Below are positions 341 through 28,832 of a stretch of 29,085 nucleotides of DNA, one piece after another. The notes under the pieces are model-generated. The model saw only the letters and a list, made by a program, of their open reading frames with translations. It did not search any database and was not told the origin of the DNA. The stretch lies in the NCBI GenBank assembly GCA_023653245.1, contig JAMNXK010000007.1, forward strand, positions 1-29,085. The letters are read 5' to 3'. Within the stretch, counting starts at the first letter, position 1. The number at the start of each line of letters is the position of its first letter. Source of the stretch: Tagaea sp. (GTDB taxonomy: Bacteria > Pseudomonadota > Alphaproteobacteria > CACIAM-22H2). The translations under genes were made by a program, and so were the position numbers.

Positions 341-354
341 GACGTCGGAAAACC

Positions 355-7853: not shown

Positions 7854-7867
7854 GCGATGGCTCCGGT

Positions 7868-10946: not shown

Positions 10947-11641
10947 ATGGGCGTGACGACAAGTTTCGCGCGCGACGCGGAAGTGGCGCTGGCGGAAACA
11001 TTCTTGCGCGACGGGTACGCGATCTTCGACGTCGAAGACCGCGTGGCGCTCGACGCGATCCGCCTGGGCGATTACCGGCATTTCGCGAAACTTCGGCCCG
11101 GCTATTTCGCCATGGGCCGCAGCCGGCTGGAACCGCTGGTCGGCAACGAACTGGCGATGCAGAACCGGATCGATTTTTCGATCCAGATGCCCGGCGACAA
11201 GACGTCGCTGCTCGACATTTATGCCGATGTGTTTTCGGGCGAAACGCCCTATCAGGTCGTCATGTGGACGCCCCTGGTGGACGTCCACCGGCCAAGTCGA
11301 TGTTCATCTTGCCGCGCGCGAAATCCGAAGCGGCGATCCGTACGCTGCCCGAGCTTGGCGCCGGCGGCATGAAGGCGCTCTACGACAAAGTCGAGCGCGA
11401 CCTCGTGTGGCTCGACATCCCCTTCGGCAAGACGCTGATCTTTTGCCCGAACTTTCTGCATGGCAATGTCCTCAACGCGGAAGCGACGACGCGCTGGTCG
11501 ATGAACGTGCGCTTCACCGGTCTGTTCACGCCCTATACGAGCCCGGACAAGCATGTCGGATCGTTCTATTTGCCGATCACGCCGCGTCCCGTCACCCGGC
11601 TGGGGATGTCCTACGTTCCGCCATCGGGGTTCGAGGCGTAG
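10947..11641 (+). pseudogene. Broken 2OG-Fe(II) oxygenase of the sporadic carbohydrate cluster type
   Basis: The start has a good ribosome binding site (GAGGGAGA, 8 bases before the ATG). The first frame runs MGVTTSFARDAEVALAETFL to VVMWTPLVDVHR at about 11290. The sense then continues one base earlier in frame (AKSMFILPRAKSEAAI to YVPPSGFEA, stop at 11641). Restoring one G in CGGCCAAG at about 11290 gives a 231-residue protein. It matches my memory of the family named sporadic carbohydrate cluster 2OG-Fe(II) oxygenase, which modifies surface sugars. The distal His and Arg are visible in FLHGN and TRWSMNVRF. The expected H-x-D iron site appears as Y-A-D (residues 92-94), a second sign of decay, although that alignment is from memory. 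Confidence 0.72.
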
Positions 11642-11646
11642 ACGCC

Positions 11647-11977
11647 GTGCCCGCCGCGCGCTTCGGCCACAAAGGCTACGTGACGTCGCGTCGATTCGGC
11701 GATCACGCGATCCCCGTGCCGGTGCAATCGCTGTTCTTGCGCGACGATTGCGCGTGCAAGGGAGTCACCTACGTGCTGCCCGTGAACGAGAACGCTTTCC
11801 CCAATTCCTATCTGGTGCTCGTTCCACATGCTGCCCCGGCGCGCCGAACGGCGGCGGGCGATCATGGAGAAGCACGTCGGGCAGGGCGCGTCGCCGCATT
11901 TCGTGCTAGAGGATCCGGCCGTGGTGAACGCCGCCGACATCGCCGCGACCGAGTCCCCGATCGCGTTCGCCGACCTC
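11647..11977 (+). pseudogene. Remnant of a LIC12192-family sporadic carbohydrate cluster protein
   Basis: The start is a GTG at 11647, 5 bases after the oxygenase stop. The N-terminal half (HKGYVTSRRFGDHAIPVPVQ, later NENAFPNSYLVL) is typical of the LIC12192 family of unknown function. At 11820 the frame breaks. The family's C-terminal half resumes in another frame (FHMLPRRAERRRAIMEKHV, then ASPHFVLED). Compared with the family as I remember it, about 15-20 residues between the YLVL and MLP parts are missing, which suggests a deletion rather than a single-base error. No stop follows: the frame runs straight into the remains of the next gene. The right border given is approximate. Confidence 0.65.
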
Positions 11978-12771
11978 GGGCGGCGCGCGCTCGCCGCGCG
12001 GGGATTTGAGGTAACCGGCACCTGGCGCGCGGCACCGCCCGCCGCCGGCGGATTTCGCGCTTTGCGCGTCGATCTGGAGGGGCCGCTCGACGATCTTGGG
12101 GATTTCGAGTCGGTGTTTCACTGCGCGGCGGAGATTCCGGCGCGCTGCCCGGACCCCGATCGTCTCCACGCGGCCAACGCGTCGGCTTGCACGGCCCTGT
12201 TCGAGCGCGCCCTCGAACGCCGCGCGCGCTGCGCGGTTTTTCTGTCGTCGATGTCGGTCTATGGCGCGATCGGCGTCGCGCGCGTAACCGAAGATGTCGA
12301 ACCCGCGGCGCTCGACGCGTACGGGCGTTCGAAACTGGATGGCGAAGCCGCGCTCGCCCGTGCTGTCGAGCGCGGTCTGCCGTCGGGGCTTTCGTTGCGA
12401 TTGCCGGGGACGGTCGGCCGCGGCTCGCACGACAATTTTCTGTCCGCCGCGCGCGTCACCCCGACGCCGCGTTCAACAACGTGCTTCATGTCGGCGATCT
12501 GTACGAATTCTTGGCGCTCCGGATCGAAGCGCCCGCGCCCGGCCACGTGATCGCCAATCTCGGCGCCACCGCGCCCGTCGCCATGCGCGCGGTCTACGCG
12601 GCGCTCTGCGAAGGGTTGGGACGCGAAGCGCGTGTCGAGTGGACCGATGCGGGGAAACCGGCCTTCACCATCGCGATCGACCGCGCGCTGGCGCTGGGAT
12701 TTCGGTCGCGGGGAACAGCGGCTTCCGTGCGCGATTTTGGGCATGATTCAAGGGCTTCGTTCATTCCATGA
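11978..12771 (+). pseudogene. Headless and frameshifted SDR epimerase
   Basis: The sequence from GRRALAARGFEVTGTWRAAP onward is an extended SDR. FHCAAEIPARC, FLSSMSVYGAIG and the catalytic YxxxK in AYGRSKLDGE are readable. The first dozen residues, which should carry the GxxGxxG loop, and the start codon are missing, and the frame is fused to the LIC12192 remnant. Between about 12440 and 12462 the frame shifts by one base, and the C-terminal part (HPDAAFNNVLHVGDLYEFLA and on) ends at 12771. The last codons run through palindrome copy 2. It cannot make a working enzyme as it stands. It was probably an NDP-sugar epimerase or reductase acting with the two genes before it. Confidence 0.72.
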
Positions 12772-12993: not shown

Positions 12994-13986
12994 ATGGTCG
13001 ATCGGATTCTCGTCACCGGCATTACCGGCTTCGTTGGCTCGCATTTGGCCGAGTACGTCCTCTCCCAAGGACCGAAATTCCGTGTCGTCGGGACCAAGCG
13101 CTGGCATCTGTCGCGGCTCGACCACATCCGGCCGATCCTCGATCGAATCGACATGCACGATTGCGACCTTACCGACGCGGTATCGACGCTCGACCTGATC
13201 CAGGCCGTGCGGCCCGCACGAGTCTTCCATTGCGCGGCCGAGAGTTTCGTCAGCCCGTCCTGGAAGCATCCGAACCGCTACATGGACGTCAACTACCGCG
13301 CCACGGTGAACCTGCTCGACGCGCTGCATCGAATCGGATCCAAGGCGTCATTCCATATTCCCGGCTCGGGCGAGGAATACGGCGACATCGCCGAGAGCGA
13401 ACTGCCGATCACGCCTGAGACGCCGCTGCGTCCCGTCAATCCTTACGCCGTCACCAAGGTCGCGCAAGACCTCATCGGCTACGTCTACCACCGGTCCTAC
13501 GGGCTCAACGTGATCCGCACGCGCGCCTTCAACCACGAAGGTCCGCGCCGCGACAAGGTGTTCGGCATTCCTTGGTATGCCTATCAAATCGCGCGTATCG
13601 AGGCAGGGCTGCAGGAGCCGGTCGTGCTGACCGGCGAGATCGACGATCGGCGGAACTTCACCCATGTCCGCGACATGGTCGAGGCCTATTGGATCGCCTC
13701 CGAAAAATGCGCGCCGGGCGAACTCTATTTGGTCGGCTCGGAAGCCGACGACATGATCTACACCTTCCGCCAGGCGCTGGAGATGCTGATCGCCATGTCC
13801 GCGGCGAAGGGTATTTCGCACCGCGTCGATCCGCGCTACGTGCGCCCGACGGCGGTGCCCCGGCTCATCGCCGACACCAGCCGCTTCCGCGACGCGACCG
13901 GCTGGACGCCGAAAATTCCCTTCGCCACCATCCTGACCGAGACTCTCGATTACTGGCGCAAGCGCGTGGCCGACGGCACGGCCTGA
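12994..13986 (+). CDS. GDP-sugar 4,6-dehydratase/Rmd-type SDR, probably acting on GDP-heptose
   Basis: The protein has 330 residues. It has an NAD(P) loop TGITGFVG (8-15), the active-site stretch GSGEEYG (124-130) and the catalytic pair YAVTK (Y151, K155). The later segments AFNHEGPRRDKVFG, QIARIEAG and NFTHVRDMVEAY are typical of the GDP-mannose 4,6-dehydratase/GDP-4-keto-6-deoxymannose reductase group. The ATG at 12994 begins right at the domain; the frame is open further upstream without plausible coding. Because the operon makes GDP-heptose, the likely reaction is formation of a GDP-4-keto-6-deoxy-heptose, as by the Campylobacter DdahA/WcbK-type enzymes. The sequence also resembles reductases of this group, so the direction of the chemistry is inferred from context. 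Confidence 0.8.
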   Translation: MVDRILVTGITGFVGSHLAEYVLSQGPKFRVVGTKRWHLSRLDHIRPILDRIDMHDCDLTDAVSTLDLIQAVRPARVFHCAAESFVSPSWKHPNRYMDVNYRATVNLLDALHRIGSKASFHIPGSGEEYGDIAESELPITPETPLRPVNPYAVTKVAQDLIGYVYHRSYGLNVIRTRAFNHEGPRRDKVFGIPWYAYQIARIEAGLQEPVVLTGEIDDRRNFTHVRDMVEAYWIASEKCAPGELYLVGSEADDMIYTFRQALEMLIAMSAAKGISHRVDPRYVRPTAVPRLIADTSRFRDATGWTPKIPFATILTETLDYWRKRVADGTA

Positions 13987-14019
13987 CGCGACCCGTTTCC
14001 ATCCGCCCGGAGGAGCCGC

Positions 14020-14472
14020 ATGGCGATCCACGACGTAAAAGTGATTCCGCTGCGCAAGATCTGCGACGAGCGCGGCATGGTCTGGCACATGCTCAAGGCC
14101 AGCGATCCCCATTTCAAGCAATTCGGCGAAATCTACTTCACGTGCGGCTACCCGGGCGTCGTCAAGGCCTGGCACATCCACAAGGAGATGACGCTCAACA
14201 ATTGCTGCCTGGTGGGCATGGTCAAGCTCGTGCTCTACGACGGCCGCGAGGGCTCGCCGAGCAAAGGCGAGCTGATGGAGTTGTTCATCGGCGAGCACAA
14301 TTACTGCCTCGTGCAGATCCCGCCGGGAATCACCAACGGCTACAAGGCGTACGGCGACAAGATGGCGATGATGGCCAATTGCGCCACCATGCCGCACGAC
14401 CGCAACGAGCTCGTCTACATCGATCCGTTCAAGAACGACATTCCCTACGATTGGTCGCTCAGACATGGATGA
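14020..14472 (+). CDS. RmlC-like (dTDP-4-dehydrorhamnose 3,5-epimerase family) cupin
   Basis: The protein has 150 residues, somewhat shorter than classic RmlC (about 180). Cupin-type features are GEIYFTCGYPGVVKAWHIHK (36-55), with the catalytic-type His in the WHIH segment, and the second half VQIPPGITNGYKAY. A strong ribosome binding site (GGAGGAG) precedes the ATG at 14020. RmlC-fold enzymes remove a proton next to the 4-keto group and epimerise C3 and/or C5 of a keto-sugar nucleotide. Following the dehydratase, it probably epimerises the keto-heptose. A cupin isomerase of the FdtA type is a less likely alternative. Confidence 0.8.
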   Translation: MAIHDVKVIPLRKICDERGMVWHMLKASDPHFKQFGEIYFTCGYPGVVKAWHIHKEMTLNNCCLVGMVKLVLYDGREGSPSKGELMELFIGEHNYCLVQIPPGITNGYKAYGDKMAMMANCATMPHDRNELVYIDPFKNDIPYDWSLRHG

Positions 14473-15481
14473 AGCCGGCCGCCACCTTCCCGCGATCGTG
14501 ATGGCGCGCGCGCCATTGCGCGTCAGCTTCGCGGGCGGCGGCACGGATTTGCGCGAGTACTACGCGGGCGGCTACGGCGCGGTGCTGTCCACGACGATCG
14601 ACAAATTCGTCTACGTTACGGTCAAGCGCCACGGCACGCTGTTCAACGAACGCTACCGCCTCAACTATTCCGAGTCCGAGAACGTCGGCTCGCTCGACGA
14701 GATCAAGAACGCGATCATGCGCGAGGCGCTGCGCGCGATCCCGGTCGATCCGCCGATCTACGTGTCGACCGTGGCCGACATCCCGGCGCTGTCCGGCCTC
14801 GGCAGTTCGTCGAGCTTCGCGGTCGCGATGGTATTGGCGTTGCACGCCATGCGCGGCGAGCGCGTCTCCACCATCGCCGCCTACGAGCTCGCCGCGCGGA
14901 TCGAAATCGAGATCCTGGGCCGCCCGATGGGCAAGCAGGACCATGCGGCCGCAGCGTTCGGCGGCCTCAACTACTTTCGATTCCTCGCCGACGGGAGCAC
15001 GGCGGTCGAGCCGTTGGCGCCGCCGGCCGCGGATCTGCGCCGGCTCTTCGCCTGTTTGCAGCTGTTTTGGACCGATCAACGCCGCGACAGTTCCAGCGTG
15101 CTGCGCGCCCAGAAGGCGAATACCGGATCGCGCCGCGCCGAACTCGACACGATGCGCGCCCAAGCCGAGACGTTGCGCAACGCGATGCGCGAACGTTTCG
15201 ATCCCGAAGCGCTGGGCACGATGCTCGACGAAGGCTGGCGGCTCAAGCGCGGTCTGGCCGACGGAATCAGCAACGGCGCGATCGATGGCTGGTACGCCGC
15301 GGCGCGCCAAGCCGGCGCCTGGGGCGGAAAAATCGCCGGCGCGGGCGGCGGCGGGTTCCTGCTGCTGGTCGTACCGCCCGAGCGGCGCGCCGACGTCGCG
15401 CGCGCGCTGCCCGATCTGGTGGAAGTGCCGATCGCCTTCGAGCCTGAGGGCGCGCGGATCGTCTACACTCTCGCCGGATGA
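14465..15481 (+). CDS. hddA: D-glycero-D-manno-heptose 7-phosphate kinase (HddA-like GHMP kinase)
   Basis: The protein has 338 residues. It begins with ARAPLRVSFAGGGTDLREYY, carries the GHMP ATP-binding motif LSGLGSSSSFA (109-119), and has the third motif GAGGGGFLLL near the C-terminus. This order and the GGGTDL start are characteristic of HddA and related sugar kinases, which phosphorylate the anomeric position of heptose 7-phosphate to give the alpha-1,7-bisphosphate. The companions GmhA, GmhB and HddC in the same operon support this over a fucokinase or galactokinase-like role. The ATG at 14465 overlaps the previous gene by 8 bases. Confidence 0.85.
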   Translation: MDEAGRHLPAIVMARAPLRVSFAGGGTDLREYYAGGYGAVLSTTIDKFVYVTVKRHGTLFNERYRLNYSESENVGSLDEIKNAIMREALRAIPVDPPIYVSTVADIPALSGLGSSSSFAVAMVLALHAMRGERVSTIAAYELAARIEIEILGRPMGKQDHAAAAFGGLNYFRFLADGSTAVEPLAPPAADLRRLFACLQLFWTDQRRDSSSVLRAQKANTGSRRAELDTMRAQAETLRNAMRERFDPEALGTMLDEGWRLKRGLADGISNGAIDGWYAAARQAGAWGGKIAGAGGGGFLLLVVPPERRADVARALPDLVEVPIAFEPEGARIVYTLAG

Positions 15482-16431
15482 GCGCCCTCGAAGCCCCCGT
15501 GCTGGTCACCGGTGCCGCGGGGCATATTGGGGCCAATCTCGTGCGGCGGCTGGTCGGGCTCGGCGTGCGGCCGACGGTGCTCGCGCGCGCGGCCACGCCG
15601 ACGCCGAGGCTCGCGGGGATCGAGGATCGCTTGGAATTGGTCCGGGCCGATCTCGCCGACGCGGCCGCGGTGCGCGCGGTTTTCGAACGCGCGCGGCCCG
15701 CGACGGTTTTCCACCTCGCCAGTTCGTTCTTCAATCCGCCGACGCTGACCGCCGTCGAGCATGTGCGCGACAACGTATCTGCGATGGCCGGCTTGCTGGA
15801 AGCCGCGCGCGCTTTTCCCGTTCGGCGATTCGTGCATATGGGAACCGCCGCCGTCTATCCCGCGCGGCCGGGCATGGACGAGGCCGTGCCGTTGGCGCCC
15901 GCCACGATCTACGGCGCGGCCAAGGCCGCGGCATCGACGCTCGCGTCGATCCACGCGCGTCTGCACGGCACGCCATGCGTGGAGCTGCGCCTGTTCGCCA
16001 CCTTCGGGCCGTGGGAACGCGCGGCGCGCTTGGTGCCGTCGGTGCTGATCGCGGCGCTGGAAGGCCGTCCCGCGCGAATCGGCGACGCGCGCCCGATGCG
16101 CGATTTCGTGTTCGTCGACGACGTGATCGACGCGCTGCTCGCCGCGGCCGAAAAGCCCGTGGCGCCGGGCGCGGTCTACAACATCTGTTCGGGCCGGGCG
16201 CGCGCGGTGGGCGAAGTGGCGCGCGCGGTGCTCGCCCGGCTGGGCGACCCGGTTCCCCTGGAAACCGGCAGTTTCGCGCCCCGGCCCGACGAAATCTGGG
16301 AGATCTCGGGTTTGGCGGCCGCTGCCGCGCGCGATCTCGATTGGCGGCCGCGCGTCGGATTCGAGCGCGGCCTCGACCTGACGATCGATTGGTTCCGGGC
16401 GAATCTTGATGTCGCCCGCCGCCTCATGTAG
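15478..16431 (+). CDS. NAD(P)-dependent sugar epimerase/reductase (extended SDR)
   Basis: The protein has 317 residues. It has the intact loop TGAAGHIG (11-18), MGTAAVY (121-127) at the active-site Ser/Thr position, and YGAAK (Y145, K149) as the catalytic pair. The ATG overlaps the kinase stop as ATGA (15478-15481). It is one of two SDRs in the operon beyond the dehydratase. The likely roles are 4-keto reduction finishing the GDP-sugar, or a 2- or 4-epimerisation. Which of the two does which cannot be told from sequence. The end is 36 bases before the methyltransferase. Confidence 0.82.
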   Translation: MSALEAPVLVTGAAGHIGANLVRRLVGLGVRPTVLARAATPTPRLAGIEDRLELVRADLADAAAVRAVFERARPATVFHLASSFFNPPTLTAVEHVRDNVSAMAGLLEAARAFPVRRFVHMGTAAVYPARPGMDEAVPLAPATIYGAAKAAASTLASIHARLHGTPCVELRLFATFGPWERAARLVPSVLIAALEGRPARIGDARPMRDFVFVDDVIDALLAAAEKPVAPGAVYNICSGRARAVGEVARAVLARLGDPVPLETGSFAPRPDEIWEISGLAAAAARDLDWRPRVGFERGLDLTIDWFRANLDVARRLM

Positions 16432-16467
16432 GTCTGCGTTCCGACGACGACGAGGATTCCCGTTTCC

Positions 16468-17691
16468 ATGCCCGCATGCATCGCCTGCGGCGGCGCCGAC
16501 GTCGAGATCTTCATGGATCTCGGCGCCACGCCGCTCGCCAACAAGTTCCTGGCGCCCGACGAGTTGGGCGCGCCCGAGCCGTCCTATCCGCTGCGCGTGG
16601 CGTTCTGCCGCGCGTGCGGGCACGTCCAGCTCGCCGAGATCGTCGAACCGCCGGCGATGTTCGACCACTATCTTTACGTCTCCTCGGCGTCGAGCACGCT
16701 CGAGAACCACCTTTTGTCGCTCGCCGAACGCGTGCGCGCGCGCATGGCCCTGAAGCCGGGCGATTTCGCGGTTGATGTCGGCGCCAACGACGGCACGCTG
16801 CTGTCGGGCTTTCTCAAGGGCGGGCAGCGCGTGCTCGGCGTCGAACCGGCGGCCAATTTGCGCCCGCTCGCCGAGAAGCGCGGCGTGGCGATCGACAATT
16901 CCTATTTCGGCGCCGCGACCGCGCGCCGGCTGCGCGCCGCGCACGGCCCCGCCAAGGTCATCACCGCGACGAACGTCTTTCCGCATATTCCGGCGCTCGG
17001 CGATTTCATCGCCGGGCTCGACGAATTGCTCGCGCCGGACGGGATCTTCGTGCTCGAGGCGCATTATCTGCAGGACCTGCTCGACGCGGCCGCGTTCGAC
17101 ACGGTCTACCACGAGCATTGCTCCTACTGGGCGGTGCGCCCGATGATCGCGCTTTTCGAGCGCCACGGCTTCGAGGTCGTCGACGTCGAGCGCCTGCCGA
17201 TCCACCACGGCCAGCTGCGCGCTTGGGTCCGGCGCAAGGGCGTGGAGACGCCTTCCTCTCGCGTCGCCGAGCTCGCCGCCGCCGAGAAGCGGCGCGGCAT
17301 GGACACGATCGCTCCCTTCCGGGCGCTGGCCGAGCAAGCCAAGCGAATCCGCGTCGAACTGGCGGCGCTGCTCGACCGGTTCAAGGCCGAGGGCAAGCGC
17401 GTCGTCGGCTACGGCGCGCCGGCCAAGGGCACGACGCTGCTGAGCTATCTCGACATCCGCGCCGATCGCATCGCATGGATCGCCGACCGTTCGCCGCTCA
17501 AACAAGGCCGTTTCACGCCGGGCACGCGCATCCCCATCGTGCCGGCCGAGCGCATCCTCGCCGAGAAACCGGACTACGTGCTGCTGCTCGCCTGGAATTT
17601 CGTCGACGAGATCGTCGCTCAGCTCGCCGAGTACCGCGCCGGCGGCGGACGGTTCATCCGCCCCGTTCCCGAAGTGGAGATTCTCGCGTGA
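16468..17691 (+). CDS. TylC3-like sugar C-methyltransferase (zinc-binding, Methyltransf_13/14 layout)
   Basis: The protein has 407 residues. It has a zinc site CIAC...CRAC (C4, C7, C47, C50), SAM motif AVDVGANDGT (101-110), the YHEH segment (214-217) and a C-terminal domain with GYGAPAKGTTLLSYL. The same layout occurs in the paralogue at 6606-7853, but clear divergence argues against a recent duplication. Enzymes of this type add a methyl branch to carbon 3 of a 4-keto-NDP-sugar. Placed between an SDR and the isomerase gene, it probably acts on the keto-heptose intermediate, giving a C-methyl-branched sugar. Methylation of another sugar is possible. Confidence 0.85.
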   Translation: MPACIACGGADVEIFMDLGATPLANKFLAPDELGAPEPSYPLRVAFCRACGHVQLAEIVEPPAMFDHYLYVSSASSTLENHLLSLAERVRARMALKPGDFAVDVGANDGTLLSGFLKGGQRVLGVEPAANLRPLAEKRGVAIDNSYFGAATARRLRAAHGPAKVITATNVFPHIPALGDFIAGLDELLAPDGIFVLEAHYLQDLLDAAAFDTVYHEHCSYWAVRPMIALFERHGFEVVDVERLPIHHGQLRAWVRRKGVETPSSRVAELAAAEKRRGMDTIAPFRALAEQAKRIRVELAALLDRFKAEGKRVVGYGAPAKGTTLLSYLDIRADRIAWIADRSPLKQGRFTPGTRIPIVPAERILAEKPDYVLLLAWNFVDEIVAQLAEYRAGGGRFIRPVPEVEILA

Positions 17692-18260
17692 CCGACGCCG
17701 AGTTCCTCGCCGACTACGAAGCCCGCCTGCGCCGGGCCGCCGCGATCGGGCCGGAGATCGCGCGCGCCATCGCCGCGTTGCGCGATCGCTGGCGCGCGCT
17801 CGCGAAGACCGGGTCCAAGGTCATGCTGTTCGGCAACGGCGGCTCGGCCGCCATCGTCCAGCACATCGCGGTCGATTTGACCAAGAACGGCGGCGTGCAG
17901 GCGGTCAGCCTCGACGCCGGCGCGATCACCTGCCTCGCCAACGATTTCGGGCACGACAATTGGATGGCCGAAGGCCTGCGCCTGTGGCACCGGCCCGGCG
18001 ATTTCGTGGTCGCGGTCTCGTCCTCGGGCCGCTCGCCGAACGTGCTGGCATTGGCCGATCGCGCCAAGGCGCTGGGACTGGGCCTGGCCACGTTCTCGGG
18101 ATTCGCGCCGGACAATCCCTTGCGCGGCCGCGGCGACGTCGACTTCTGGGTCGATTCGCGCGCCTACAACATCGTCGAGACCGCGCATCAGTTCTGGCTG
18201 ATGGCGGCGGTCGATCTGCTGATCGGCCGCGCCGAGTATCCGGCCTCGCCGGCGCGTTAG
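17688..18260 (+). CDS. gmhA: Sedoheptulose 7-phosphate isomerase-like SIS protein (GmhA-like)
   Basis: The protein has 190 residues and is a single SIS domain: FGNGGSAAIVQHIAVDLT (48-65), AVSSSGRSPNV (109-119) and VETAHQFWLMAAVDLLIG (163-180). The length and motifs fit GmhA, which converts sedoheptulose 7-phosphate to D-glycero-D-manno-heptose 7-phosphate, the first step of the pathway. The catalytic His is likely H167. The catalytic Glu of E. coli GmhA (in HIAAEL) aligns with D63 here, a conservative change, so a related sugar-phosphate isomerase is not excluded. The start is a GTG at 17688 overlapping the methyltransferase stop as GTGA. Confidence 0.82.
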   Translation: MTDAEFLADYEARLRRAAAIGPEIARAIAALRDRWRALAKTGSKVMLFGNGGSAAIVQHIAVDLTKNGGVQAVSLDAGAITCLANDFGHDNWMAEGLRLWHRPGDFVVAVSSSGRSPNVLALADRAKALGLGLATFSGFAPDNPLRGRGDVDFWVDSRAYNIVETAHQFWLMAAVDLLIGRAEYPASPAR

Positions 18261-18264
18261 ACGC

Positions 18265-19152
18265 ATGCGCGTGTTCGTCACCGGCATCGCCAGTTTCGTC
18301 GGCCGCGCGTTCGAGCGGCGGGCGACCGAAGCCGGGCACGAAGTTTGGGGGGCCGATCTCGCGCCGTCCGAAAGCCCGCGCCACGTCCGCGCCGACATGC
18401 GCGACCCGTCGTTCGCCGACGCCATCCCCGACGGGATCGACGCGGTCGTGCATCTGGCCGCGCTGTCCCGCGATCCCGATTGCCGGGGCAAGTCGTACGA
18501 ATGCTTCGACGCGAATGTGATGGGCACGCTGGCGGTCGAGCGCGCGGCGCGCGCGCGCCGGGCCAAGCGTCTCGTCTTCGCGTCGAGCGAATGGGTCTAT
18601 GACGGCTTGCCCGAGGGCGCGCCGCGCCACGCGGGCGTGGCGCTCGACGCCGCGCGCATCGGCGGCGAATACGCGCTGTCCAAATTCGTGTCCGAGTGCA
18701 ATCTGCGCCAGATCGCCGCGCGCGGCGGCACGCCCGCCACGGCGCTGCGCTTCGGCATCATTTACGGTCCGCGGCGGAACAACTGGTCGGCCGTCGAGTC
18801 GCTTTTGGACAAGGTCGCGCGAGGCGAGGCGATTTCCGTGGGTTCGCGCGCGACCGCGCGACGCTTTCTGCACGTCGCCGACGCCGCCGGCGCCATTCTC
18901 GCCGCGGCGCCCCGATCGGGCGGATTCGAGATTTTGGACGTGCAGGGGCCGGCGCTGGTCGCGTTGGGCGAGATCGTCGAGCGCGGCGCGGCGATCCTGG
19001 GGCGCGCCGCGACGCCGACCGAGACCGACCCCGCCAATCCGAGCGTTCGGGCCGTCGACGATTCCGCGAGTCGCGCCGCCCTCGGCTGGGCGCCGGAGAC
19101 CGGAATCGAGGCGGGGCTGCGTTCGGTTGCGAAGTTCTGGGGCTTGCTGTAG
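18265..19152 (+). CDS. NAD(P)-dependent epimerase/reductase with an atypical glycine loop (extended SDR)
   Basis: The protein has 295 residues. The nucleotide loop reads VTGIASFVGRAF: the middle Gly of GxxGxxG is Ser (S10), with the outer Gly residues kept. The active site is ASSEWVYDG (106-114) and the catalytic pair YALSK (Y136, K140). The C-terminal part (WAPETGIEAGLRSVAKFWG) is typical of NDP-sugar SDRs. It starts 4 bases after the isomerase stop. It is probably a reductase or epimerase of the same sugar pathway; the altered loop may affect cofactor preference. Confidence 0.82.
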   Translation: MRVFVTGIASFVGRAFERRATEAGHEVWGADLAPSESPRHVRADMRDPSFADAIPDGIDAVVHLAALSRDPDCRGKSYECFDANVMGTLAVERAARARRAKRLVFASSEWVYDGLPEGAPRHAGVALDAARIGGEYALSKFVSECNLRQIAARGGTPATALRFGIIYGPRRNNWSAVESLLDKVARGEAISVGSRATARRFLHVADAAGAILAAAPRSGGFEILDVQGPALVALGEIVERGAAILGRAATPTETDPANPSVRAVDDSASRAALGWAPETGIEAGLRSVAKFWGLL

Positions 19153-19188
19153 AGGTCCTGCGGTTTTCGCCGCCGGAGTCATCGTCCG

Positions 19189-19746
19189 ATGGAATTGCGC
19201 AAGCGCCGCTTGGACGGCCTTTTCGACTTGGTGGCGCCGCGCCTGACCGATGCGCGCGGCTTTCTGCACAAACCCTACGACTCGCGCGGCTTTTCGGCCG
19301 CCTACGGCGCCGACAAGGCGTGGCGGCAGGTCATCGTCTCCCATACCGAGAATGCGGGCACGGTGCGCGGTCTCTACGTTCAGCGCGCGCCCTTCACGGA
19401 AGGCAAGGTCGTGGTCTGTTTGCGCGGCCGCATGTGGTGGGTGGTCGTCGATCTGCGCCGGGGCGGCGCCGGTTTCGGCGCGTGGGAAGGCGTCGATCTC
19501 GCGCCGGGGGCGGGGCTGTATATCGAGCCCGGCTTCGCGCATGGCTGCGTCTCCCTGGCCGGCGACACGGATCTCCTGCTCCTCGCCGACAGCGACCATT
19601 CCGACGAGGCGGGGGTCGCGATCCTGTGGAACGACCCCGAGCTGGGCATCGACTGGCCGCTTGACCGCGCGACGCCCACGCTGTCGGCCGCCCACGCGGC
19701 GGGTCTGTCCTTCGCCGAGTTCAAGGCGAAACATGGCGCGATCTGA
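19189..19746 (+). CDS. RmlC-family 3,5-epimerase homologue lacking the usual catalytic His
   Basis: The protein has 185 residues, the normal RmlC length, with the full family pattern: DARGFLHKPYDSRGF, VRGLYVQRAPFTEGKVVVCLRG (59-80), GLYIEPGFAHGCVSL (109-123) and ILWNDPELGIDWP (145-157). In canonical RmlC the RGLHFQ motif carries the catalytic base; here it reads RGLYVQ with Tyr at position 63. The second-half Tyr (Y111), the His of FAHG and the Asp of NDP remain. It may epimerise only one centre, use another base, or be non-catalytic. It follows the SDR in the heptose operon and overlaps the next start by 14 bases. Confidence 0.85.
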   Translation: MELRKRRLDGLFDLVAPRLTDARGFLHKPYDSRGFSAAYGADKAWRQVIVSHTENAGTVRGLYVQRAPFTEGKVVVCLRGRMWWVVVDLRRGGAGFGAWEGVDLAPGAGLYIEPGFAHGCVSLAGDTDLLLLADSDHSDEAGVAILWNDPELGIDWPLDRATPTLSAAHAAGLSFAEFKAKHGAI

Positions 19747-20677
19747 AGGAACGCAAGCCAACGCCGATTTCGGCCTCGCGCGCGAAGTCCTGCGTCTGCG
19801 CCTGTCGCAGATGCTGATCAACGAGATGTACCGCGCCAAGGCGTTCAAGGTGCCGATCCATCTCGCCATGGGCCACGAAGCGATCGCGGTCGGCGTCGTG
19901 GGCGCGCTCGCGGCCGCCGACCGGCTCGTGCTGCCGCACCGGAATTTGCACTACAATCTCGCCAAGGCGGACGCGCTGCGCGCCGTGGTCGACGAGTTCC
20001 TGCTCAAGCCCGAAGGGCTCGCGCGCGGCAAGCTCGGCTCGATGAACCTCGCCAATCCGGACGCGGGCGTGACGTACAGCTCGAGCATCCTGGGCAACAA
20101 TTTCGGCGTGGCGGTCGGACTCGGATTGGCGCTCAAGCTGCGCGCCGAAGGCGGGCTCGTCTGCGTCGTCACCGGCGACGGCGCGATCGAGGAGGGCGCG
20201 TTCCACGAAGCGCTGGTGTTCCTCGCGGGCCACCGGATTCCGGCGCTGGTCGTGGTCGAGAACAACGGCTGGTCGCTCGCTTCGACCATCGCCGAACGGC
20301 GCGGACCGATCGATCTGGGCGGGCTCGCGCGCGCGCTCGGCGCGGGGTATCGCGCGCTCGCCGGCAACGACGTGCAGGCGTATCGCGACGCGGCGGCCGA
20401 TTCGCGCGCCGAGGCGCTGGCGCGCGGGGGCCCGATCGTGATCGAGGCCGGCCTCGATTCGCTGGGGTCTTGGCGCATGAAGACGCCCGACCATCCCGAG
20501 GGCAAGTACATCAACTATCATGCCGGCCCCGCGCCCGAGATCGAGCCGCGAGAATGGCCCGCGCTCGCCGCCGATGCGAGCGATCCGGTGCACGTGCTGA
20601 CGGCGCGCTTCGCCGAAGAGCGTCTGCGCGGCGAGGCGGCGGCGATGCTGGCACGGTTGCGCAAGGAGCTCGCGTGA
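19733..20677 (+). CDS. Thiamine-diphosphate enzyme, E1 alpha-type subunit
   Basis: The protein has 314 residues. It matches the E1 alpha fold of 2-oxoacid and acetoin dehydrogenases: GHEAIAVGVVGAL (47-59), RGKLGSMNLANPDAG (98-112), and the thiamine-diphosphate/Mg motif running from GDG (148-150) to the Asn pair in VENNGWS (177-178). The E1 consensus GKGGSMH is GKLGSMN here. There is no E2 lipoyl or E3 gene nearby, so a dehydrogenase complex is unlikely. A carboligase or transketolase-like role, adding or moving a two-carbon unit on the sugar or supplying sedoheptulose 7-phosphate, fits the context better. The ATG at 19733 lies inside the 3' end of the RmlC-like gene. Confidence 0.82.
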   Translation: MARSEGTQANADFGLAREVLRLRLSQMLINEMYRAKAFKVPIHLAMGHEAIAVGVVGALAAADRLVLPHRNLHYNLAKADALRAVVDEFLLKPEGLARGKLGSMNLANPDAGVTYSSSILGNNFGVAVGLGLALKLRAEGGLVCVVTGDGAIEEGAFHEALVFLAGHRIPALVVVENNGWSLASTIAERRGPIDLGGLARALGAGYRALAGNDVQAYRDAAADSRAEALARGGPIVIEAGLDSLGSWRMKTPDHPEGKYINYHAGPAPEIEPREWPALAADASDPVHVLTARFAEERLRGEAAAMLARLRKELA

Positions 20678-21630
20678 GCACGCTGGTCGAGCACTTCAAC
20701 GGCCTCTTGCGCGCGCGCCTGACCGCGCGCGGGCGGCGCGCGGCGCTGATCGGGCAGAACGTCTCGACGGGGTCGTGCCTGTCGGGGCTCACGCGCGGGT
20801 TCGACAAGGTGCCGGGCTGTTCGGTTCTCAATACGCCCAATTGCGAAAACGTGCTGGTCGGTGCCGGGATCGGTCTCATGCTCGGCGGCGTGGACGCGAT
20901 CGTGGCGCTCAAGCAGCAGGACTTCCTGCTGCTCGGACTCGACCATCTGGTCAACACGTTGAACGCGCTGCGTCATCGCGCGCCGCAGGCGTCGTTGGCG
21001 GTGCTGTCCATCGCCGTCGACAACGGCTGGGAAGGCCCGCAATCCTGCCTGGTCGATCCCGACGATTTCTGTTCCTTCGCGCGCATCCCCGGCTACTGCG
21101 TGAGCAACGCGCACGACGCGGCACTCGTCGCCGAGCGGCATTTTTTCGCGCCCGGCGCCAAGCTCGTGACGGTCAGCCAGCGCCAGTTCCGCAAGCCGAT
21201 CGATCCCGCGACGTCCGTCGCCACCCTCGACGCCGCCGGCGATTGGCTGCGCCATCGCGACGGACCCGACGCCACGATCGTGGCGTGCGGCTTCGCGCTG
21301 CCCGAAGCGATCGAACTCGCCGACTCGCTCGCCGCGCGCGGCATGCGCGCGAGCGTTCTCCAGCGCGTCAACGCCGCCGCGCGCGACATGGGCCCCGCTT
21401 TGCGCGAAGCGGCGCGCGCCGGCCGGCTGGTCGTCGTCGACGATTCGAAGGCGGTCAACCGCGCGAGCCTGCATTTGGTCGCCGCCGCGCGCCGCGACCT
21501 GCCCGGCGGGCGCGTGATCGAGGTCGCGCGGGACGCGTGGAACGACGAACTTTCGGCGCCGACGGGCGACGCGCTGGCCGTCGAGTTCGACCGCGTGGCG
21601 CGCGAGCTGGGAGCGGGCGGTGCCGGCTGA
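20674..21630 (+). CDS. Thiamine-diphosphate enzyme, E1 beta/transketolase C-terminal-type subunit
   Basis: The protein has 318 residues and is the partner of the upstream alpha subunit. TPNCENVLVGAGIGLMLGG (54-72) holds the Glu (E59) expected to activate the thiazolium via the aminopyrimidine ring. The pyrimidine-binding domain is followed by a transketolase C-terminal-like domain (DATIVACGFALPEAIELADS, then LVVVDDSKAVNR). In a tetramer with the alpha subunit it would complete the cofactor site. The start is a GTG at 20674 overlapping the previous stop as GTGA, so the two subunits are translationally coupled. The substrate is unknown. Confidence 0.82.
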   Translation: MSTLVEHFNGLLRARLTARGRRAALIGQNVSTGSCLSGLTRGFDKVPGCSVLNTPNCENVLVGAGIGLMLGGVDAIVALKQQDFLLLGLDHLVNTLNALRHRAPQASLAVLSIAVDNGWEGPQSCLVDPDDFCSFARIPGYCVSNAHDAALVAERHFFAPGAKLVTVSQRQFRKPIDPATSVATLDAAGDWLRHRDGPDATIVACGFALPEAIELADSLAARGMRASVLQRVNAAARDMGPALREAARAGRLVVVDDSKAVNRASLHLVAAARRDLPGGRVIEVARDAWNDELSAPTGDALAVEFDRVARELGAGGAG

Positions 21631-22816
21631 TCGGCCGCGTCAGGCGGTCGTGCTCGCGGGCGGGTTGGGCACGCGGCTGCGCCCGCTGACCGACACGACG
21701 CCCAAGCCGATGATCCCGTTCCACGCCAAGCCCTTCGTCGAGTATCTGATCGAGCATCTGCGCGACCAAGGCTTCGAGCGCGTGGTGCTGCTGCTCGGCT
21801 ATCTGGCCGAAACCGTGCGCGCGCATTTCGGCGACGGCAAGCGCCTGGGCATCGCCATCGACTACGTCGTCTCGCCCGTCGAGGACGAAACCGGCGCGCG
21901 CTTGCGACACGCGCGGGATCTGCTCGATCCGGTTTTTCTGCTCGCCTATTGCGACAATTATTGGCCGATGCCGTTCGACGCGTTGTGGGAGCGCTATGTC
22001 CGCGCCGGCCGCGCCGCGCAAGTCGTCGTCTATCGCAACCGCGACGGTTATACGCGCGACAATCTCAAGGTCGAGCCGGACGGACGCGTCTCGATCTACG
22101 ACAAGTCGCGCGCTTCACCTGGGCTCGCGGGCGTGGATATTGGCTTTATCCTGATGCGCCGCGAAGCTGTCGATCTGCTGCCCGAAGGCAATGTCGGGTT
22201 CGAGGCCAACGTCTATCCGCGTCTGGTCGCGCAAGGGCAACTCGGCGCCTTCGAGACAGATCATCGCTACTACTCGGTCGGAACGCTCGCGCGCTTGCCG
22301 GACACCGAGCGCTTCCTCGCGCGCAAACCCGCCGTGATCCTCGACCGCGACGGCACGCTCAACCGCAAGCCGCCGCGCGGGCAATACGTGCGCACGCCGG
22401 CCGAGTTCGAATGGCTGCCGGGTGCCCGCGAAGCGCTGGCGTCGTTCGCGCGCGCGGGCTTCACGGTGGCGCTGGCGACCAACCAAGCCGGGATCGCGCG
22501 TGGCGCCATGACGCCGGCCGATCTCGATGCGATTCACGCGCGACTGCGGGACGAAGCCGAAGCGACGGGGGGCCGGATCGACGCGATCTATCATTGTCCG
22601 CACGGGTGGGACGAAGGCTGCGCGTGCCGCAAGCCCAAGCCGGGGCTGCTGCACATGGCGCAGCGCGACTTCGCGCTCGATCTGAGCCGCACGCCCTTCA
22701 TCGGCGACGACGCGCGCGACGGCGAGGCGGCGGCGGCGGCGTTCGCACCGTTCCACATGGTGGCGGAAGAGCGGGACCTGCTCGCGGTCGCGCGCGAGCT
22801 GATTTCAGCCCAGTAG
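21620..22816 (+). CDS. Fused heptose-1-phosphate guanylyltransferase and heptose bisphosphate phosphatase (HddC-GmhB)
   Basis: The protein has 398 residues in two parts. Residues 8-235 are a nucleotidyltransferase with VVLAGGLGTRLRPLTDTTPK and PMIPFHAKPFVEYL, and a metal-binding Asp in AYCDNYW. Residues 238-398 are an HAD phosphatase with LDRDGTLN (241-248), ATNQAGIARG, the zinc loop CPHGWDEGCACRKPKPG (326-342) and FIGDDARDG, the GmhB pattern. It would remove the 7-phosphate from heptose 1,7-bisphosphate and add GMP, giving GDP-D-glycero-alpha-D-manno-heptose. The start is a GTG at 21620 overlapping the E1 beta stop by 11 bases. The stop overlaps the converging glycosyltransferase gene by 12 bases. 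Confidence 0.88.
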   Translation: MPADRPRQAVVLAGGLGTRLRPLTDTTPKPMIPFHAKPFVEYLIEHLRDQGFERVVLLLGYLAETVRAHFGDGKRLGIAIDYVVSPVEDETGARLRHARDLLDPVFLLAYCDNYWPMPFDALWERYVRAGRAAQVVVYRNRDGYTRDNLKVEPDGRVSIYDKSRASPGLAGVDIGFILMRREAVDLLPEGNVGFEANVYPRLVAQGQLGAFETDHRYYSVGTLARLPDTERFLARKPAVILDRDGTLNRKPPRGQYVRTPAEFEWLPGAREALASFARAGFTVALATNQAGIARGAMTPADLDAIHARLRDEAEATGGRIDAIYHCPHGWDEGCACRKPKPGLLHMAQRDFALDLSRTPFIGDDARDGEAAAAAFAPFHMVAEERDLLAVARELISAQ

Positions 22817-24923: not shown

Positions 24924-25910
24924 CTACTGTCCGATCACCAGCCGCTTGGGCTCGTTGTACAGCACCATGCAGCCCGCGCAGATCTTCAGATTCCGGCGCT
25001 TGCCGTCGGCGTGCAGCTTGCGGATTTTCGCGAAGCGCGCCGAATTGAACACGTCGATCGGATCGGCGCCGAACACGTTGCCGAAGCCGAACTGCGCGTC
25101 GAGAATATCCTCGAAGCACAGCGACACTTCGCCATTCGCCAGGATGACCAGCTTCTCGAAAATGTGGTGGCAGGCATTGCGGTCGATCACGGGATCGCGC
25201 CAATCCTGATCGACGACGGCGCCGTCTTCGATGGCGCCGGACCAAGTGTGCACGTCGTAGCGGATGATCACGTCGCGCTTGGCGGGCGAGACGACGCTTT
25301 GCCAGAAGCGCGCGTATTCCTCCCATTCATGCGCGTTGCCGGGTTGGCGCACGAAACGGACCACGAAGCGCGTCTTGAAGCCTTCGGCGTCGCGCATCCG
25401 GATCATGCCGACCGCGTTGGCGACCACGCGCTCGAAACCCGTGCGCACGCGCGCGGCCTCGTGGGTCGCCTTGCTGGCGCCGTCAATGCTGAAGATCACC
25501 GTGTCGAGACCCGCTTGCATCAACGCGCGCGCGCGCGTCCCGTCGAGTAGATGCGCGTTGGTCGAGATCGAGGTGTTGCGGAAGCCCTTGTCCTTGACGT
25601 AGCGCACGCGCTCGGCCAGATGCGGGTCGATCACCGGTTCGCCCAGACCGAACAGGTCGAGCATGTCGATGCTCTCGCGGTACGGCACCAGCGAATCGAT
25701 CAGCTCCCGGAACTTGTCCATCGGCATGACGCCTTTGGGCCGTTTGGTGGGCTGGTTGATCACGCAGAACCCGCAGGCCGCGTTGCAGCCGAAGATCGTT
25801 TCGATCACCACGCGCTTGGGTACGATCCGCTCGCCATTCCAGGCGGGATCGTAAGCGCGTGCGGGCGCGAGGCTGGTACCTTCGGCCAAGGGGCCTCCGA
25901 TGGATGGCAT
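24924..25910 (-). CDS. Radical SAM protein with SPASM-like C-terminal domain
   Basis: The protein has 328 residues. The 4Fe-4S cluster motif CxxxCxxC is in GCNAACGFC (C42, C46, C49), followed by DLFGLGEPVIDP (the GGE-like SAM motif), STNAHLL and IFSIDGAS. The C-terminal Cys residues (NACHHIF, VSLCFED, ICAGC) with LANGEVSLC form a SPASM-type auxiliary cluster domain. Such enzymes perform radical oxidations, methylthiolations or peptide and sugar modifications. In a glycan locus, dehydrogenation or epimerisation of a sugar is plausible but unproven. The ATG at 25910 is chosen because it precedes the conserved domain; no clear ribosome binding site is visible. Confidence 0.85.
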   Translation of the reverse strand: MPSIGGPLAEGTSLAPARAYDPAWNGERIVPKRVVIETIFGCNAACGFCVINQPTKRPKGVMPMDKFRELIDSLVPYRESIDMLDLFGLGEPVIDPHLAERVRYVKDKGFRNTSISTNAHLLDGTRARALMQAGLDTVIFSIDGASKATHEAARVRTGFERVVANAVGMIRMRDAEGFKTRFVVRFVRQPGNAHEWEEYARFWQSVVSPAKRDVIIRYDVHTWSGAIEDGAVVDQDWRDPVIDRNACHHIFEKLVILANGEVSLCFEDILDAQFGFGNVFGADPIDVFNSARFAKIRKLHADGKRRNLKICAGCMVLYNEPKRLVIGQ

Positions 25911-25950
25911 ATGGGGTCGTTCTATCGTCGTTGTTCGTCGGGTGTCAAAT

Positions 25951-26685: not shown

Positions 26686-26840
26686 TCGGAATCCTCGGGG
26701 TCGGTGGCGGTCGTGGCGCGGGTGTTTAACAGGCCGGGTGGCCGGACGCACGCCTCGCGTGGCGGGCCGCGAAGGCCACTGGCCACACGCAAAACCCACG
26801 TCATCGCCGTATATCCCACTAAATCAGTAGGAATTTGCTC

Positions 26841-26921: not shown

Positions 26922-28832
26922 GTGACCGCTCCCATCGTTCCGGCATTCGATCTTTTCAAGCCGGCCGTCGACAGCGACGGCGCGCGTGGCTTCCTCGCTC
27001 GGCGTTTCGCCGGCCAAAAAATCCGCACCGTCTTGCTCGTCAATCCGCCCGATGGAACCGCCGAACTGTTCCGGATCGAAACCGCCATGCGCCGGCGCTA
27101 CCCGAACTATCCGCCCTATGGGCTGGGGATCATCGCGCAGAATTTGCGCGAGGTCGGCATCGAGGTCGCGATCGTGAATCTGAACCACGAGGTGTTGAAG
27201 GCGGCGCGCCGGCACGGCGAAGCCGCGGCCTTTGATTTCGACGCGGTGTGGACGGCCGCGCTCGACGACGCGATCGCCCGCCATCGGCCGGACGCTATCG
27301 GCGTGACCTGCATGTTCACGATGACGCACGAATCGCTCAAGCGGACTTGCGAGCGGGCGGCCGGATCCGGAATCCCCGTCGTGATCGGCGGCGTGCACGT
27401 CACCAACGACGTCGAGCGCGTGCTCGACGATATTCCTTGCGCCACCGCCGCCTTCACGCGCGAAGGCGACATCGCGATCAAGCGTTTCGTGCGCGCGGTC
27501 AACGGCACGGGCGCGGTCGAGGATCTCGGTCAAGTCATCCTCAACGATTCCGACCTGGGCGTTCGCTACCGCTTCCTCGCCGAATGCCAGCCCGAGTCCG
27601 CCGAGATGGACACGATCCCGGCTTACGAGTTGCTGGAGATCGGCGACCTGACGGCGGAAGGCGTGATGGGCAATTTCTACGGCTTCAAGCCGCCCGGCAC
27701 GCGCTTCGCCACCTCGCTTTCCGCGCGCGGTTGCCGCGCGCAATGCACGTTCTGCAGCGTGCGCAATTTCAACGGCAAGGGCGTACGCCAGCGCTCGGTC
27801 GATTCGGTTCTCGACGAGTTGCAGATGCTCAAGGAAGTCCACGGCGTCGGCCACATCGTTTGGCTCGACGACGACCTTCTCAAGGACGAGCGCCGCGCGA
27901 TCGAGCTGTTCGGCGGCATGGTCCGGCGCAATTTGGGCATGACCTGGGACGCGACCAACGGCGTGATCGCGGCGTCGTGCACCGAACCGGTCGTCCATGC
28001 GATGCGCGATTCGGGCTGCATCGCGCTCAATATCGGCATGGAGTCGGGCAATCCGACCGTGCTCAAGCAGGTCAAGAAGCCCGGCACGGTGCGCAACTTC
28101 GTCGAAGCTGCCGCCGTGCTCAAAAAATTCCCCGAAATCCACGCGCGCGTCTTCCTCATGCTCGGTTTTCCGGGCGAGACGATGGCGATGATCGCAGACA
28201 CGATCAACGTCGCGCGCGCCATGGATCTCGATTGGTGCAGCACCACCGTGCTGCAGCCGCTGCCCAACACGCCGATCTACGATTCGATGGTGGCGCAGGG
28301 TCTTATCAAGGCGATGAAAGCCAGCGAGGTCCGTTTCAATTCGGGCGGCTACGGCAAGCAGAACGAGCTCGATTCGGGCGAACGGCTCGCCACGCGCAGT
28401 TTCGACGAAGCGTTCGCTTCCATCCCGATGGACGCGATCCCGAATTCGGCGCAGCTCGAAGACATTTGGTTCTTCATGAACTACCATCTCAACTTCCACC
28501 GTCTCTTCTCGGAGACGCGCGAGATGAAGCTGCGCCAGCAGATGATGAATCTGCGGACGCTATCGGACGTGATCTCGCCCGAGCACGGGCTGGCGCTGTA
28601 TTTCACCGGCTATCTCCAGCACCGTCTCGAAGGCCGAATCGAACCGGCGCTGATCGCGCGCCTCAAGCGCAAGCTCGCCGAAGGCGACTATTGGAGCGAC
28701 CGTTTCGCCGCTTTCGGCCTCTCGGCGTCGGACCTCGAGCGAGCGGATTTCCGGAACAAGGAAATCGCGCGCCTGCTGCCCGGCAAGCTGCCGCGCGACG
28801 ACCGGCGCTTCGAGGATCTGGTTCTGGGATGA
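26922..28832 (+). CDS. B12-binding-domain-type radical SAM protein
   Basis: The protein has 636 residues. An N-terminal Rossmann region (IRTVLLVNPPDGTAELF, YPPYGLGIIAQNLREVGIEV, IGVTCMFTMTHES, VVIGGVHVTND) is the cobalamin-binding-type domain. The radical SAM core has CxxxCxxC in ARGCRAQCTFCSV (C271, C275, C278), then HIVWLDDDLL, NIGMESGNP and FLMLGFPGET. The classic B12-ligating DxHxxG motif is not seen, so cobalamin binding is uncertain. Family members methylate unactivated carbons or rearrange carbon skeletons. The start is a GTG at 26922 with AAGGCGAG upstream. The stop overlaps the lptE start as ATGA. A C-terminal region of about 200 residues is conserved only in part of the family. Confidence 0.85.
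   Translation: MTAPIVPAFDLFKPAVDSDGARGFLARRFAGQKIRTVLLVNPPDGTAELFRIETAMRRRYPNYPPYGLGIIAQNLREVGIEVAIVNLNHEVLKAARRHGEAAAFDFDAVWTAALDDAIARHRPDAIGVTCMFTMTHESLKRTCERAAGSGIPVVIGGVHVTNDVERVLDDIPCATAAFTREGDIAIKRFVRAVNGTGAVEDLGQVILNDSDLGVRYRFLAECQPESAEMDTIPAYELLEIGDLTAEGVMGNFYGFKPPGTRFATSLSARGCRAQCTFCSVRNFNGKGVRQRSVDSVLDELQMLKEVHGVGHIVWLDDDLLKDERRAIELFGGMVRRNLGMTWDATNGVIAASCTEPVVHAMRDSGCIALNIGMESGNPTVLKQVKKPGTVRNFVEAAAVLKKFPEIHARVFLMLGFPGETMAMIADTINVARAMDLDWCSTTVLQPLPNTPIYDSMVAQGLIKAMKASEVRFNSGGYGKQNELDSGERLATRSFDEAFASIPMDAIPNSAQLEDIWFFMNYHLNFHRLFSETREMKLRQQMMNLRTLSDVISPEHGLALYFTGYLQHRLEGRIEPALIARLKRKLAEGDYWSDRFAAFGLSASDLERADFRNKEIARLLPGKLPRDDRRFEDLVLG

What the first reader, a model, noticed from the sequence alone, without database searches (positions are those of the whole stretch)
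12994..22816. Eleven-gene operon for an unusual GDP-heptose-derived sugar
GmhA-like, HddA-like and fused HddC-GmhB proteins give a full route to GDP-D-glycero-alpha-D-manno-heptose. Interleaved with them in one tightly coupled operon are a GDP-sugar dehydratase-type SDR, two RmlC-like proteins, two SDRs, a C-methyltransferase and a two-subunit thiamine enzyme. Known 6-deoxy-heptose pathways (Campylobacter Ddah/Mlgh, WcbK) use a dehydratase, an epimerase and a reductase but no thiamine enzyme or C-methyltransferase. I infer a branched, methylated heptose or higher sugar.
Basis: partly seen in the sequence, partly recalled or inferred. Interest (0 to 1): 0.7.

Follow-up and report, generated by a model that had tools for sequence, protein, structure and literature searches.

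The report
Operon for a branched heptose sugar
Eleven neighbouring bacterial genes look like an assembly line that builds a rare seven-carbon sugar and then adds extra carbons to it with a vitamin-B1 enzyme, and much of the set recurs in very different microbes, including archaea.

Summary
Eleven same-strand genes (12994-22816, gaps -14 to +36 bp) encode GmhA-, HddA- and HddC-GmhB-like proteins, three SDRs, two RmlC-like proteins, a C-methyltransferase and a PDH-E1-like alpha/beta pair. The thiamine and methyltransferase genes are not passengers: of 28 loci from bacteria and archaea chosen by the E1-beta gene, 26 carry HddA and 19 the C-methyltransferase; 0 of 8 control loci do. No E2 gene was found in the 29 loci looked at, and 4 of 10 host genomes show none, so the pair is probably a non-oxidative carboligase like those that add two-carbon branches to antibiotic sugars. 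Most likely product: a GDP-heptose given a C2 branch and a C-methyl, about ten carbons, for a surface polysaccharide; no product is shown. Homologues of three more window genes (CmcI-type methyltransferase, SPASM and B12 radical SAM, 24.9-28.8 kb) recur in these loci. The closest biological analogue is the eleven-gene bradyrhizose cluster, which I believe I located in Bradyrhizobium sp. BTAi1: heptose-type genes with a split transketolase. BTAi1 shows neither HddA nor this E1-beta family, so bradyrhizose itself is unlikely here.

The parts
12994..13986 (+). A: GDP-sugar SDR (GDP_Man_Dehyd family), putative maker of the keto-sugar
   Evidence: Pfam 242 bits; PDB 2pk3 196 bits, 7us5 GDP-heptose 4,6-dehydratase 153 bits; A in 10 of 28 loci, another SDR (Z) instead in 16
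14020..14472 (+). B: RmlC-fold protein, isomerase/epimerase-like
   Evidence: PF00908 39 bits; PDB 3ejk 'dTDP Sugar Isomerase' E 5e-30
14465..15481 (+). C: HddA-like heptose 7-phosphate 1-kinase
   Evidence: NF049969 126.6 bits, below cut-off 600; in 26 of 28 related loci
15478..16431 (+). D: SDR, reductase/epimerase-like; no acidic residue seen in the dehydratase motif (by eye)
   Evidence: PF01370 160 bits; alignment of 6 sequences
16468..17691 (+). E: SAM-dependent sugar C-methyltransferase (Methyltransf_13/23/14)
   Evidence: PF08484 187 bits, PF08421 76 bits; in 19 of 28 loci
17688..18260 (+). F: GmhA-like sedoheptulose 7-phosphate isomerase
   Evidence: SIS_2 45 bits; GmhA-type models up to 59 bits, below cut-off
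18265..19152 (+). G: SDR coupled to the thiamine pair
   Evidence: PF01370 119 bits; in 22 of 28 loci; its distances track those of J (Spearman 0.77)
19189..19746 (+). H: RmlC-like protein; Tyr at the position of the RmlC His and Leu at that of a Tyr (catalytic roles partly recalled)
   Evidence: PF00908 120 bits; alignments
19733..20677 (+). I: E1-alpha-like TPP subunit (start could be 19811)
   Evidence: PF00676 86 bits; GDG..NN invariant in 26 sequences; AlphaFold pLDDT 88, nearest PDH E1-alpha
20674..21630 (+). J: E1-beta-like subunit; invariant Glu58; G-x-Q-S where 1um9_B has its His run
   Evidence: AlphaFold pLDDT 91.4, nearest 1um9_B
21620..22816 (+). K: HddC-like nucleotidyltransferase fused to GmhB-like HAD phosphatase
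   Evidence: NTP_transferase 65 bits; NF006506 156 bits, NF049965 69 bits
24924..26102 (-). M: SPASM radical-SAM protein, extended set
   Evidence: PF04055, PF13186; homologues in 9 of 28 loci, e.g. directly after J in L003
25951..26799 (-). L: CmcI-type O-methyltransferase, extended set
   Evidence: PF04989 253 bits; in 21 of 28 loci, but distances do not track J
26922..28832 (+). N: B12-binding radical-SAM protein, extended set
   Evidence: PF02310, PF04055; 60-71% identical copies in L001, L006, L017; a B12 radical SAM of either form in 8 of 28 loci

Best explanation
The operon makes a GDP-activated higher sugar for a surface polysaccharide. [quoted passage not shown] A oxidises C4 (with or without loss of the 6-hydroxyl). 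B and possibly H shuttle protons at C3/C5. On the keto-sugar, E adds a methyl to the neighbouring carbon and the I/J pair decarboxylates pyruvate and adds the two-carbon unit to the ketone, leaving a tertiary alpha-hydroxyketone; G and D reduce remaining ketones. Carbon count 7+2+1 = 10. L, M and N may O-methylate, oxidise or epimerise, and methylate it further. Shown here: gene content, recurrence of the set, E1 fold and TPP motif, no E2 found in the loci. Inferred: substrates, order, carbon positions, and that all modifications fall on one sugar.
Against: No product, substrate or kinetics. The heptose-gene matches lie below equivalog cut-offs. 9 of 28 loci show no C-methyltransferase, and L070 has the C-methyl genes without the thiamine pair, so one sugar carrying both changes is not forced. 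CmcI distances do not track J (0.06, p 0.29). The window's H differs from RmlC at two active-site positions. A is closer to a reductase than to a dehydratase. Many loci are cut by contig ends, and several hosts are MAGs. No sequence of a characterised sugar alpha-KADH2 could be compared.
Confidence: 0.6

Rival explanations
1. Two sugars, not one: K-A-B-C-D-E makes a C-methyl (6-deoxy)heptose, and G-H-I-J makes a separate C2-branched heptose from the same GDP-heptose pool.
For: L070 has K-Z-B-C-D-E without the thiamine pair; 9 of 28 loci show the pair without the C-methyltransferase; in some loci, such as L017, the two blocks are kilobases apart and on opposite strands.
Against: In the window the blocks are interleaved in one operon with F between them and K at the end; only one nucleotidyltransferase in the operon; J and E distances correlate (0.32, p 0.001; shared ancestry not removed).
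Confidence: 0.25
2. The thiamine pair acts early and on an aldehyde, like a transketolase or DXP synthase, lengthening the phosphorylated chain (C7 to C9) before GDP is attached.
For: E1, transketolase and DXPS folds are related; the putative bradyrhizose cluster of BTAi1 has a split transketolase beside a GmhA-like gene.
Against: I/J are nearest to 2-oxoacid dehydrogenase E1 subunits in sequence and fold; the E1-type sugar enzymes described add C2 to keto-sugars; homologues for a whole C7 route are present.
Confidence: 0.12
3. The operon makes only a plain or 6-deoxy GDP-heptose, and the E1 pair is a small 2-oxoacid dehydrogenase.
For: HddA-like kinases occur without the E1-beta family in 53 of 55 HddA-bearing alphaproteobacterial genomes of the sample; E1 homology.
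Against: No E2 in the loci, none found in 4 of 10 genomes; where 1um9_B reads HHHSQ the family reads G-x-Q-S in 39 of 40 sequences, P0070 having His; the linkage is seen across phyla.
Confidence: 0.05
4. The operon makes bradyrhizose itself.
For: Carbon count 7+2+1 = 10 equals the ten carbons of bradyrhizose (PMC9912281); both clusters have eleven genes.
Against: 0 of 16 Bradyrhizobium genomes with the BTAi1-type transketolase gene have the E1-beta family; BTAi1 and the 9 other photosynthetic carriers show no HddA; the thiamine enzyme is of another class.
Confidence: 0.05

Closest known systems
Bradyrhizose cluster of photosynthetic Bradyrhizobium (gdh cluster of Busset et al. 2016, PMC4743980; putatively L092:1944-12182 in BTAi1)
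   Same: Eleven genes; GmhA-like SIS isomerase, sugar kinases, nucleotidyltransferase, two SDRs, a two-subunit thiamine enzyme, a methyltransferase, and a HAD-like protein by eye. Bradyrhizose has ten carbons, the count inferred here.
   Different: Split transketolase instead of an E1-type pair; HldE-like and APH-type kinases instead of HddA; Methyltransf_11-type enzyme instead of Methyltransf_14; a zinc alcohol dehydrogenase; no RmlC among the eleven. That L092 is Busset's cluster is my inference from gene number, order, distribution and distance to a Wzy_C gene.
alpha-KADH2 two-subunit carboligases of antibiotic sugars (AviB1/AviB2, EvdU5/EvdS3, KbDH, aldgamycin; PMC12247030, PMC10338323, PMC4753412)
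   Same: PDH-E1-like alpha and beta genes beside a nucleotide-sugar pathway; would add C2 to a keto-sugar.
   Different: Those described in the passages I saw are in natural-product pathways with hexose- or pentose-derived sugars; here a GDP-heptose-type pathway in loci of Gram-negative bacteria and archaea.
YerE-like thiamine enzymes of LPS sugars (yersiniose and others; PMC12247030, passages)
   Same: Two-carbon or longer branch on a 4-keto sugar of LPS, giving a tertiary alcohol.
   Different: YerE belongs to the decarboxylase superfamily (a single protein, PMC4753412 passages) and acts on CDP-3,6-dideoxy-4-keto-glucose.
Campylobacter GDP-heptose modification pathways (PMC10680097, PMC7949155, passages)
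   Same: Isomerase, kinase, phosphatase, guanosyltransferase, then a 4,6-dehydratase or 4-dehydrogenase, RmlC-like epimerases and C4 reductases.
   Different: No thiamine enzyme or C-methyltransferase in the part of the enzyme table that I saw.

Membership tests
[quoted passage not shown]
   F, C, K
[quoted passage not shown]
   HddA 126.6/600, GmhA-type 59.2/320, HddC 69.2/300, NF006506 155.9/178 bits
[quoted passage not shown]
   needs an assay
alpha-KADH2-type sugar carboligase | E1-alpha plus E1-beta fold with TPP motif and activating Glu | tested here: met
   GDG..NN invariant in 26 A2 sequences, Glu58 in 40 of 40 A1 sequences; folds
alpha-KADH2-type sugar carboligase | no E2/lipoyl partner beside the pair | tested here: met
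   0 of 29 loci hit by four E2 proteins, 3 of 3 PDH-type loci hit; E2 genes of six genomes on other contigs, none found in four, some of them MAGs
alpha-KADH2-type sugar carboligase | sequence kinship to AviB/KbDH/aldgamycin enzymes | not tested
   no such sequence was at hand
alpha-KADH2-type sugar carboligase | C2 transfer from pyruvate to a ketone | not testable with these tools
   needs an assay
2-oxoacid dehydrogenase complex E1 | linked E2 | tested here: not met
   positive controls G001:C78, G003:C70, G004:C224
RmlC 3,5-epimerase (H) | catalytic His and Tyr (roles from PMC7949155 passages, positions partly recalled) | tested here: not met
   Tyr and Leu in the window; in the 19-row alignment His is kept in 16 and Tyr in 6
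Bradyrhizose cluster | split transketolase, no HddA | tested here: not met
   window has an E1-type pair and HddA; BTAi1 has the reverse
YerE-like | decarboxylase-superfamily single protein | tested here: not met
   two E1-type chains

The most novel reading that the evidence does not exclude
This is one member of a widespread, undescribed class of heptose-plus-thiamine pathways, in bacteria and archaea, that build nine- to eleven-carbon branched or carbocyclic surface sugars. Bradyrhizose would be the transketolase-class example; the window would be the PDH-E1-class example, in which the added C2 ketone may close a ring by aldol addition and radical-SAM enzymes add further carbons.
Probability: 0.3. 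Interest if true: 0.85.

Novelty: new variant of a known kind. Interest (0 to 1): 0.62.

Why it matters
In the review passages I read (PMC12247030), thiamine-made branched sugars are described for YerE-type enzymes in LPS and E1-type enzymes in natural-product pathways. An E1-type pair tied to a GDP-heptose-type route, recurring from Alphaproteobacteria to Nitrosopumilus, would add another kind and a source of C-C bond-forming biocatalysts. The comparison also gives a testable gene-by-gene hypothesis for bradyrhizose, whose genes were called unknown in 2016 before the cluster was proposed (PMC4743980): heptose-type isomerase, kinases and nucleotidyltransferase, then a split transketolase and a methyltransferase.

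Tried and rejected
Bradyrhizose as the product was my first idea (7+2+1 carbons); rejected because BTAi1 shows no HddA and BTAi1 and 15 other carriers no E1-beta family (the same profile rang). The G365 split-transketolase locus (L076) as the bradyrhizose cluster: rejected, its gene is in 5 of 265 genomes of the genus and in only 1 of the 27 with Photo_RC. Plasmid collection with J: no match. Telling dehydratase from reductase for A by the active-site motif: not possible, both 2pk3 and 7us5 have the Glu. Two paper searches for the gene combination listed no paper on it, only papers on analogues or unrelated ones; this does not prove it unpublished. Dropped rows: L028 (31% over 90 residues, none of the genes) was left out of the 28-locus counts and L071 was added; of nine weaker J matches, eight served as controls and the ninth, in L006 beside the sugar cluster, was left out; bit thresholds were set by me after seeing the data. 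In one search one of five E2 stretches (L110) gave an antisense frame and is not counted.
Full report
Observation. The eleven genes are real and tightly packed: gaps run from -14 to +36 bp over 9.8 kb on one strand. Two cautions: the curated equivalog models for the heptose enzymes match below their cut-offs, so 'GDP-heptose' is homology plus context; and gene A resembles a GDP-6-deoxy-D-lyxo-4-hexulose reductase (2pk3, 196 bits) more than the solved GDP-heptose 4,6-dehydratase (7us5, 153 bits).

Two modules. L070 has K-Z-B-C-D-E with no thiamine pair, and 9 of 28 loci show the pair without the C-methyltransferase. Hence a 'C-methyl heptose' block and a 'G-H-I-J' block seem to exist apart, and the window interleaves them. 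SDR Z stands in place of A in 16 of 28 loci; both occur only in L016. The motif of A reads GSGEEYG; in Z it reads SSQSMYG in 11 of 21 rows and has no acidic residue in any of the 20 rows that cover it (one locus appears twice). So a simple 4-oxidation rather than a dehydration may suffice there; Campylobacter uses both a 4-dehydrogenase and a 4,6-dehydratase (PMC10680097, passages).

The thiamine enzyme. I carries the GDG..NN motif and aligns in sequence to PDH E1-alpha only up to about position 237, after which it has its own conserved tail (LG.W ... GKYINYHAG). J keeps an invariant Glu (40 of 40), taken as the TPP-activating one; where 1um9_B reads HHHSQ the family reads G-x-Q-S in 39 of 40 (P0070 has His). 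A histidine of E1-beta is named in reductive acylation in PDB titles (1olx and 1ols); that it falls in this segment is recalled. Models of both subunits are confident (pLDDT 91 and 88) and match E1-beta and E1-alpha best. PF00198 (E2) was not found in 4 of 10 host genomes; the 11 E2 genes of the other six lie on other contigs than the sugar pair (contig numbers; lengths). Four E2 proteins hit 0 of 29 sugar-pair loci and 3 of 3 PDH-type control loci. MAG incompleteness limits this. The best reading is a non-oxidative carboligase. The review PMC12247030 (section 7 read; passages) says that E1-type 'alpha-KADH2' enzymes add C2 branches to C3 or C4 of sugars in natural products, pyruvate being shown as donor for some, and that YerE-type enzymes do so in LPS. 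PMC4753412 and PMC10338323 (passages) give AviB1/AviB2 and EvdU5/EvdS3 as PDH-like pairs proposed for such steps.

Epimerase-like genes. The window's H has Tyr and Leu where RmlC has a His and a Tyr. This is not general: in the 19-row alignment His is kept in 16 and Tyr in 6. In Campylobacter heptose epimerases a His mutant keeps reduced C3 activity on heptose (passages of PMC7949155). H may be a C3-only enzyme, a non-enzyme or a new activity.

Beyond the coordinates. Clustering of ORFs in the loci picked out three more window genes: a CmcI-type O-methyltransferase (25951-26799), a SPASM radical-SAM protein (24924-26102) and a B12-binding radical-SAM protein (26922-28832). Homologues sit beside the pair elsewhere: SPASM directly after J in L003 and L017; B12 radical SAM 60-71% identical in L001, L006 and L017. 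The SPASM (9 of 28) and B12 (8 of 28) genes are in a minority of the loci, so their part in the pathway is less certain.

Comparison with bradyrhizose. Busset et al. 2016 (PMC4743980; section 15 and passages seen) found that mutants in gdh, in an eleven-gene cluster conserved in six photosynthetic Bradyrhizobium strains and about 40 kb from rfaL, lose bradyrhizose, and proposed that cluster for its synthesis (polar effects not excluded). All eleven are collinear in four further genomes that I fetched (L104-L107); in two of these (L105, L106) neither of the two flanking genes tested is found. The transketolase C gene is in 16 of 265 genomes of the genus: 10 of 27 with reaction-centre genes and 6 of 238 without. 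None of the 16 has the window's E1-beta family, and none of the 10 with reaction-centre genes shows HddA (the other 6 were not tested). So the two systems share logic (heptose-type genes, two-subunit thiamine enzyme, SDRs, methyltransferase) but not enzymes. Bradyrhizose has ten carbons and forms hemiacetals through O4, O5 or O9 (PMC9912281, passages and section 7 part 1). With a heptose, a C2 unit and a methyl the count is also ten; this is inference for both systems.

Verdict. A real, conserved and apparently undescribed combination, within known chemistry. The bold reading, a family of heptose-plus-thiamine pathways to nine- to eleven-carbon branched or carbocyclic sugars, is not excluded and can be tested first with two purified proteins. 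'Undescribed' rests only on the searches in an open-access library.

Noticed in passing
window 10947-12771: Two genes upstream of the operon (an oxygenase-like and an SDR-like product, by eye) each seem to continue in a second reading frame, which suggests frameshifts or sequencing errors.
   Followed up: no
window 6606-7865 (-): A second C-methyltransferase-like gene in a divergent sugar operon; its ORF clusters with E (no Pfam scan run on it).
   Followed up: no
L006:18964-20925: A second E1-alpha/E1-beta-like pair (31% and 26% to I and J) about 8 kb from the first; similar pairs in L032 and L039.
   Followed up: no
   Followed up: partly
L092:1944-12182 (BTAi1): Eleven-gene cluster that fits the published bradyrhizose cluster; contains a split transketolase and a GmhA-like gene.
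   Followed up: yes
L018, L025: The E1 pair with HddA, GmhB-type and G genes in Thaumarchaeota and Nitrosopumilus records.
   Followed up: partly
window 1-930 and 28830-29085: NeuB-like and LptE-like gene ends by eye, placing the window in an envelope polysaccharide region.
   Followed up: no
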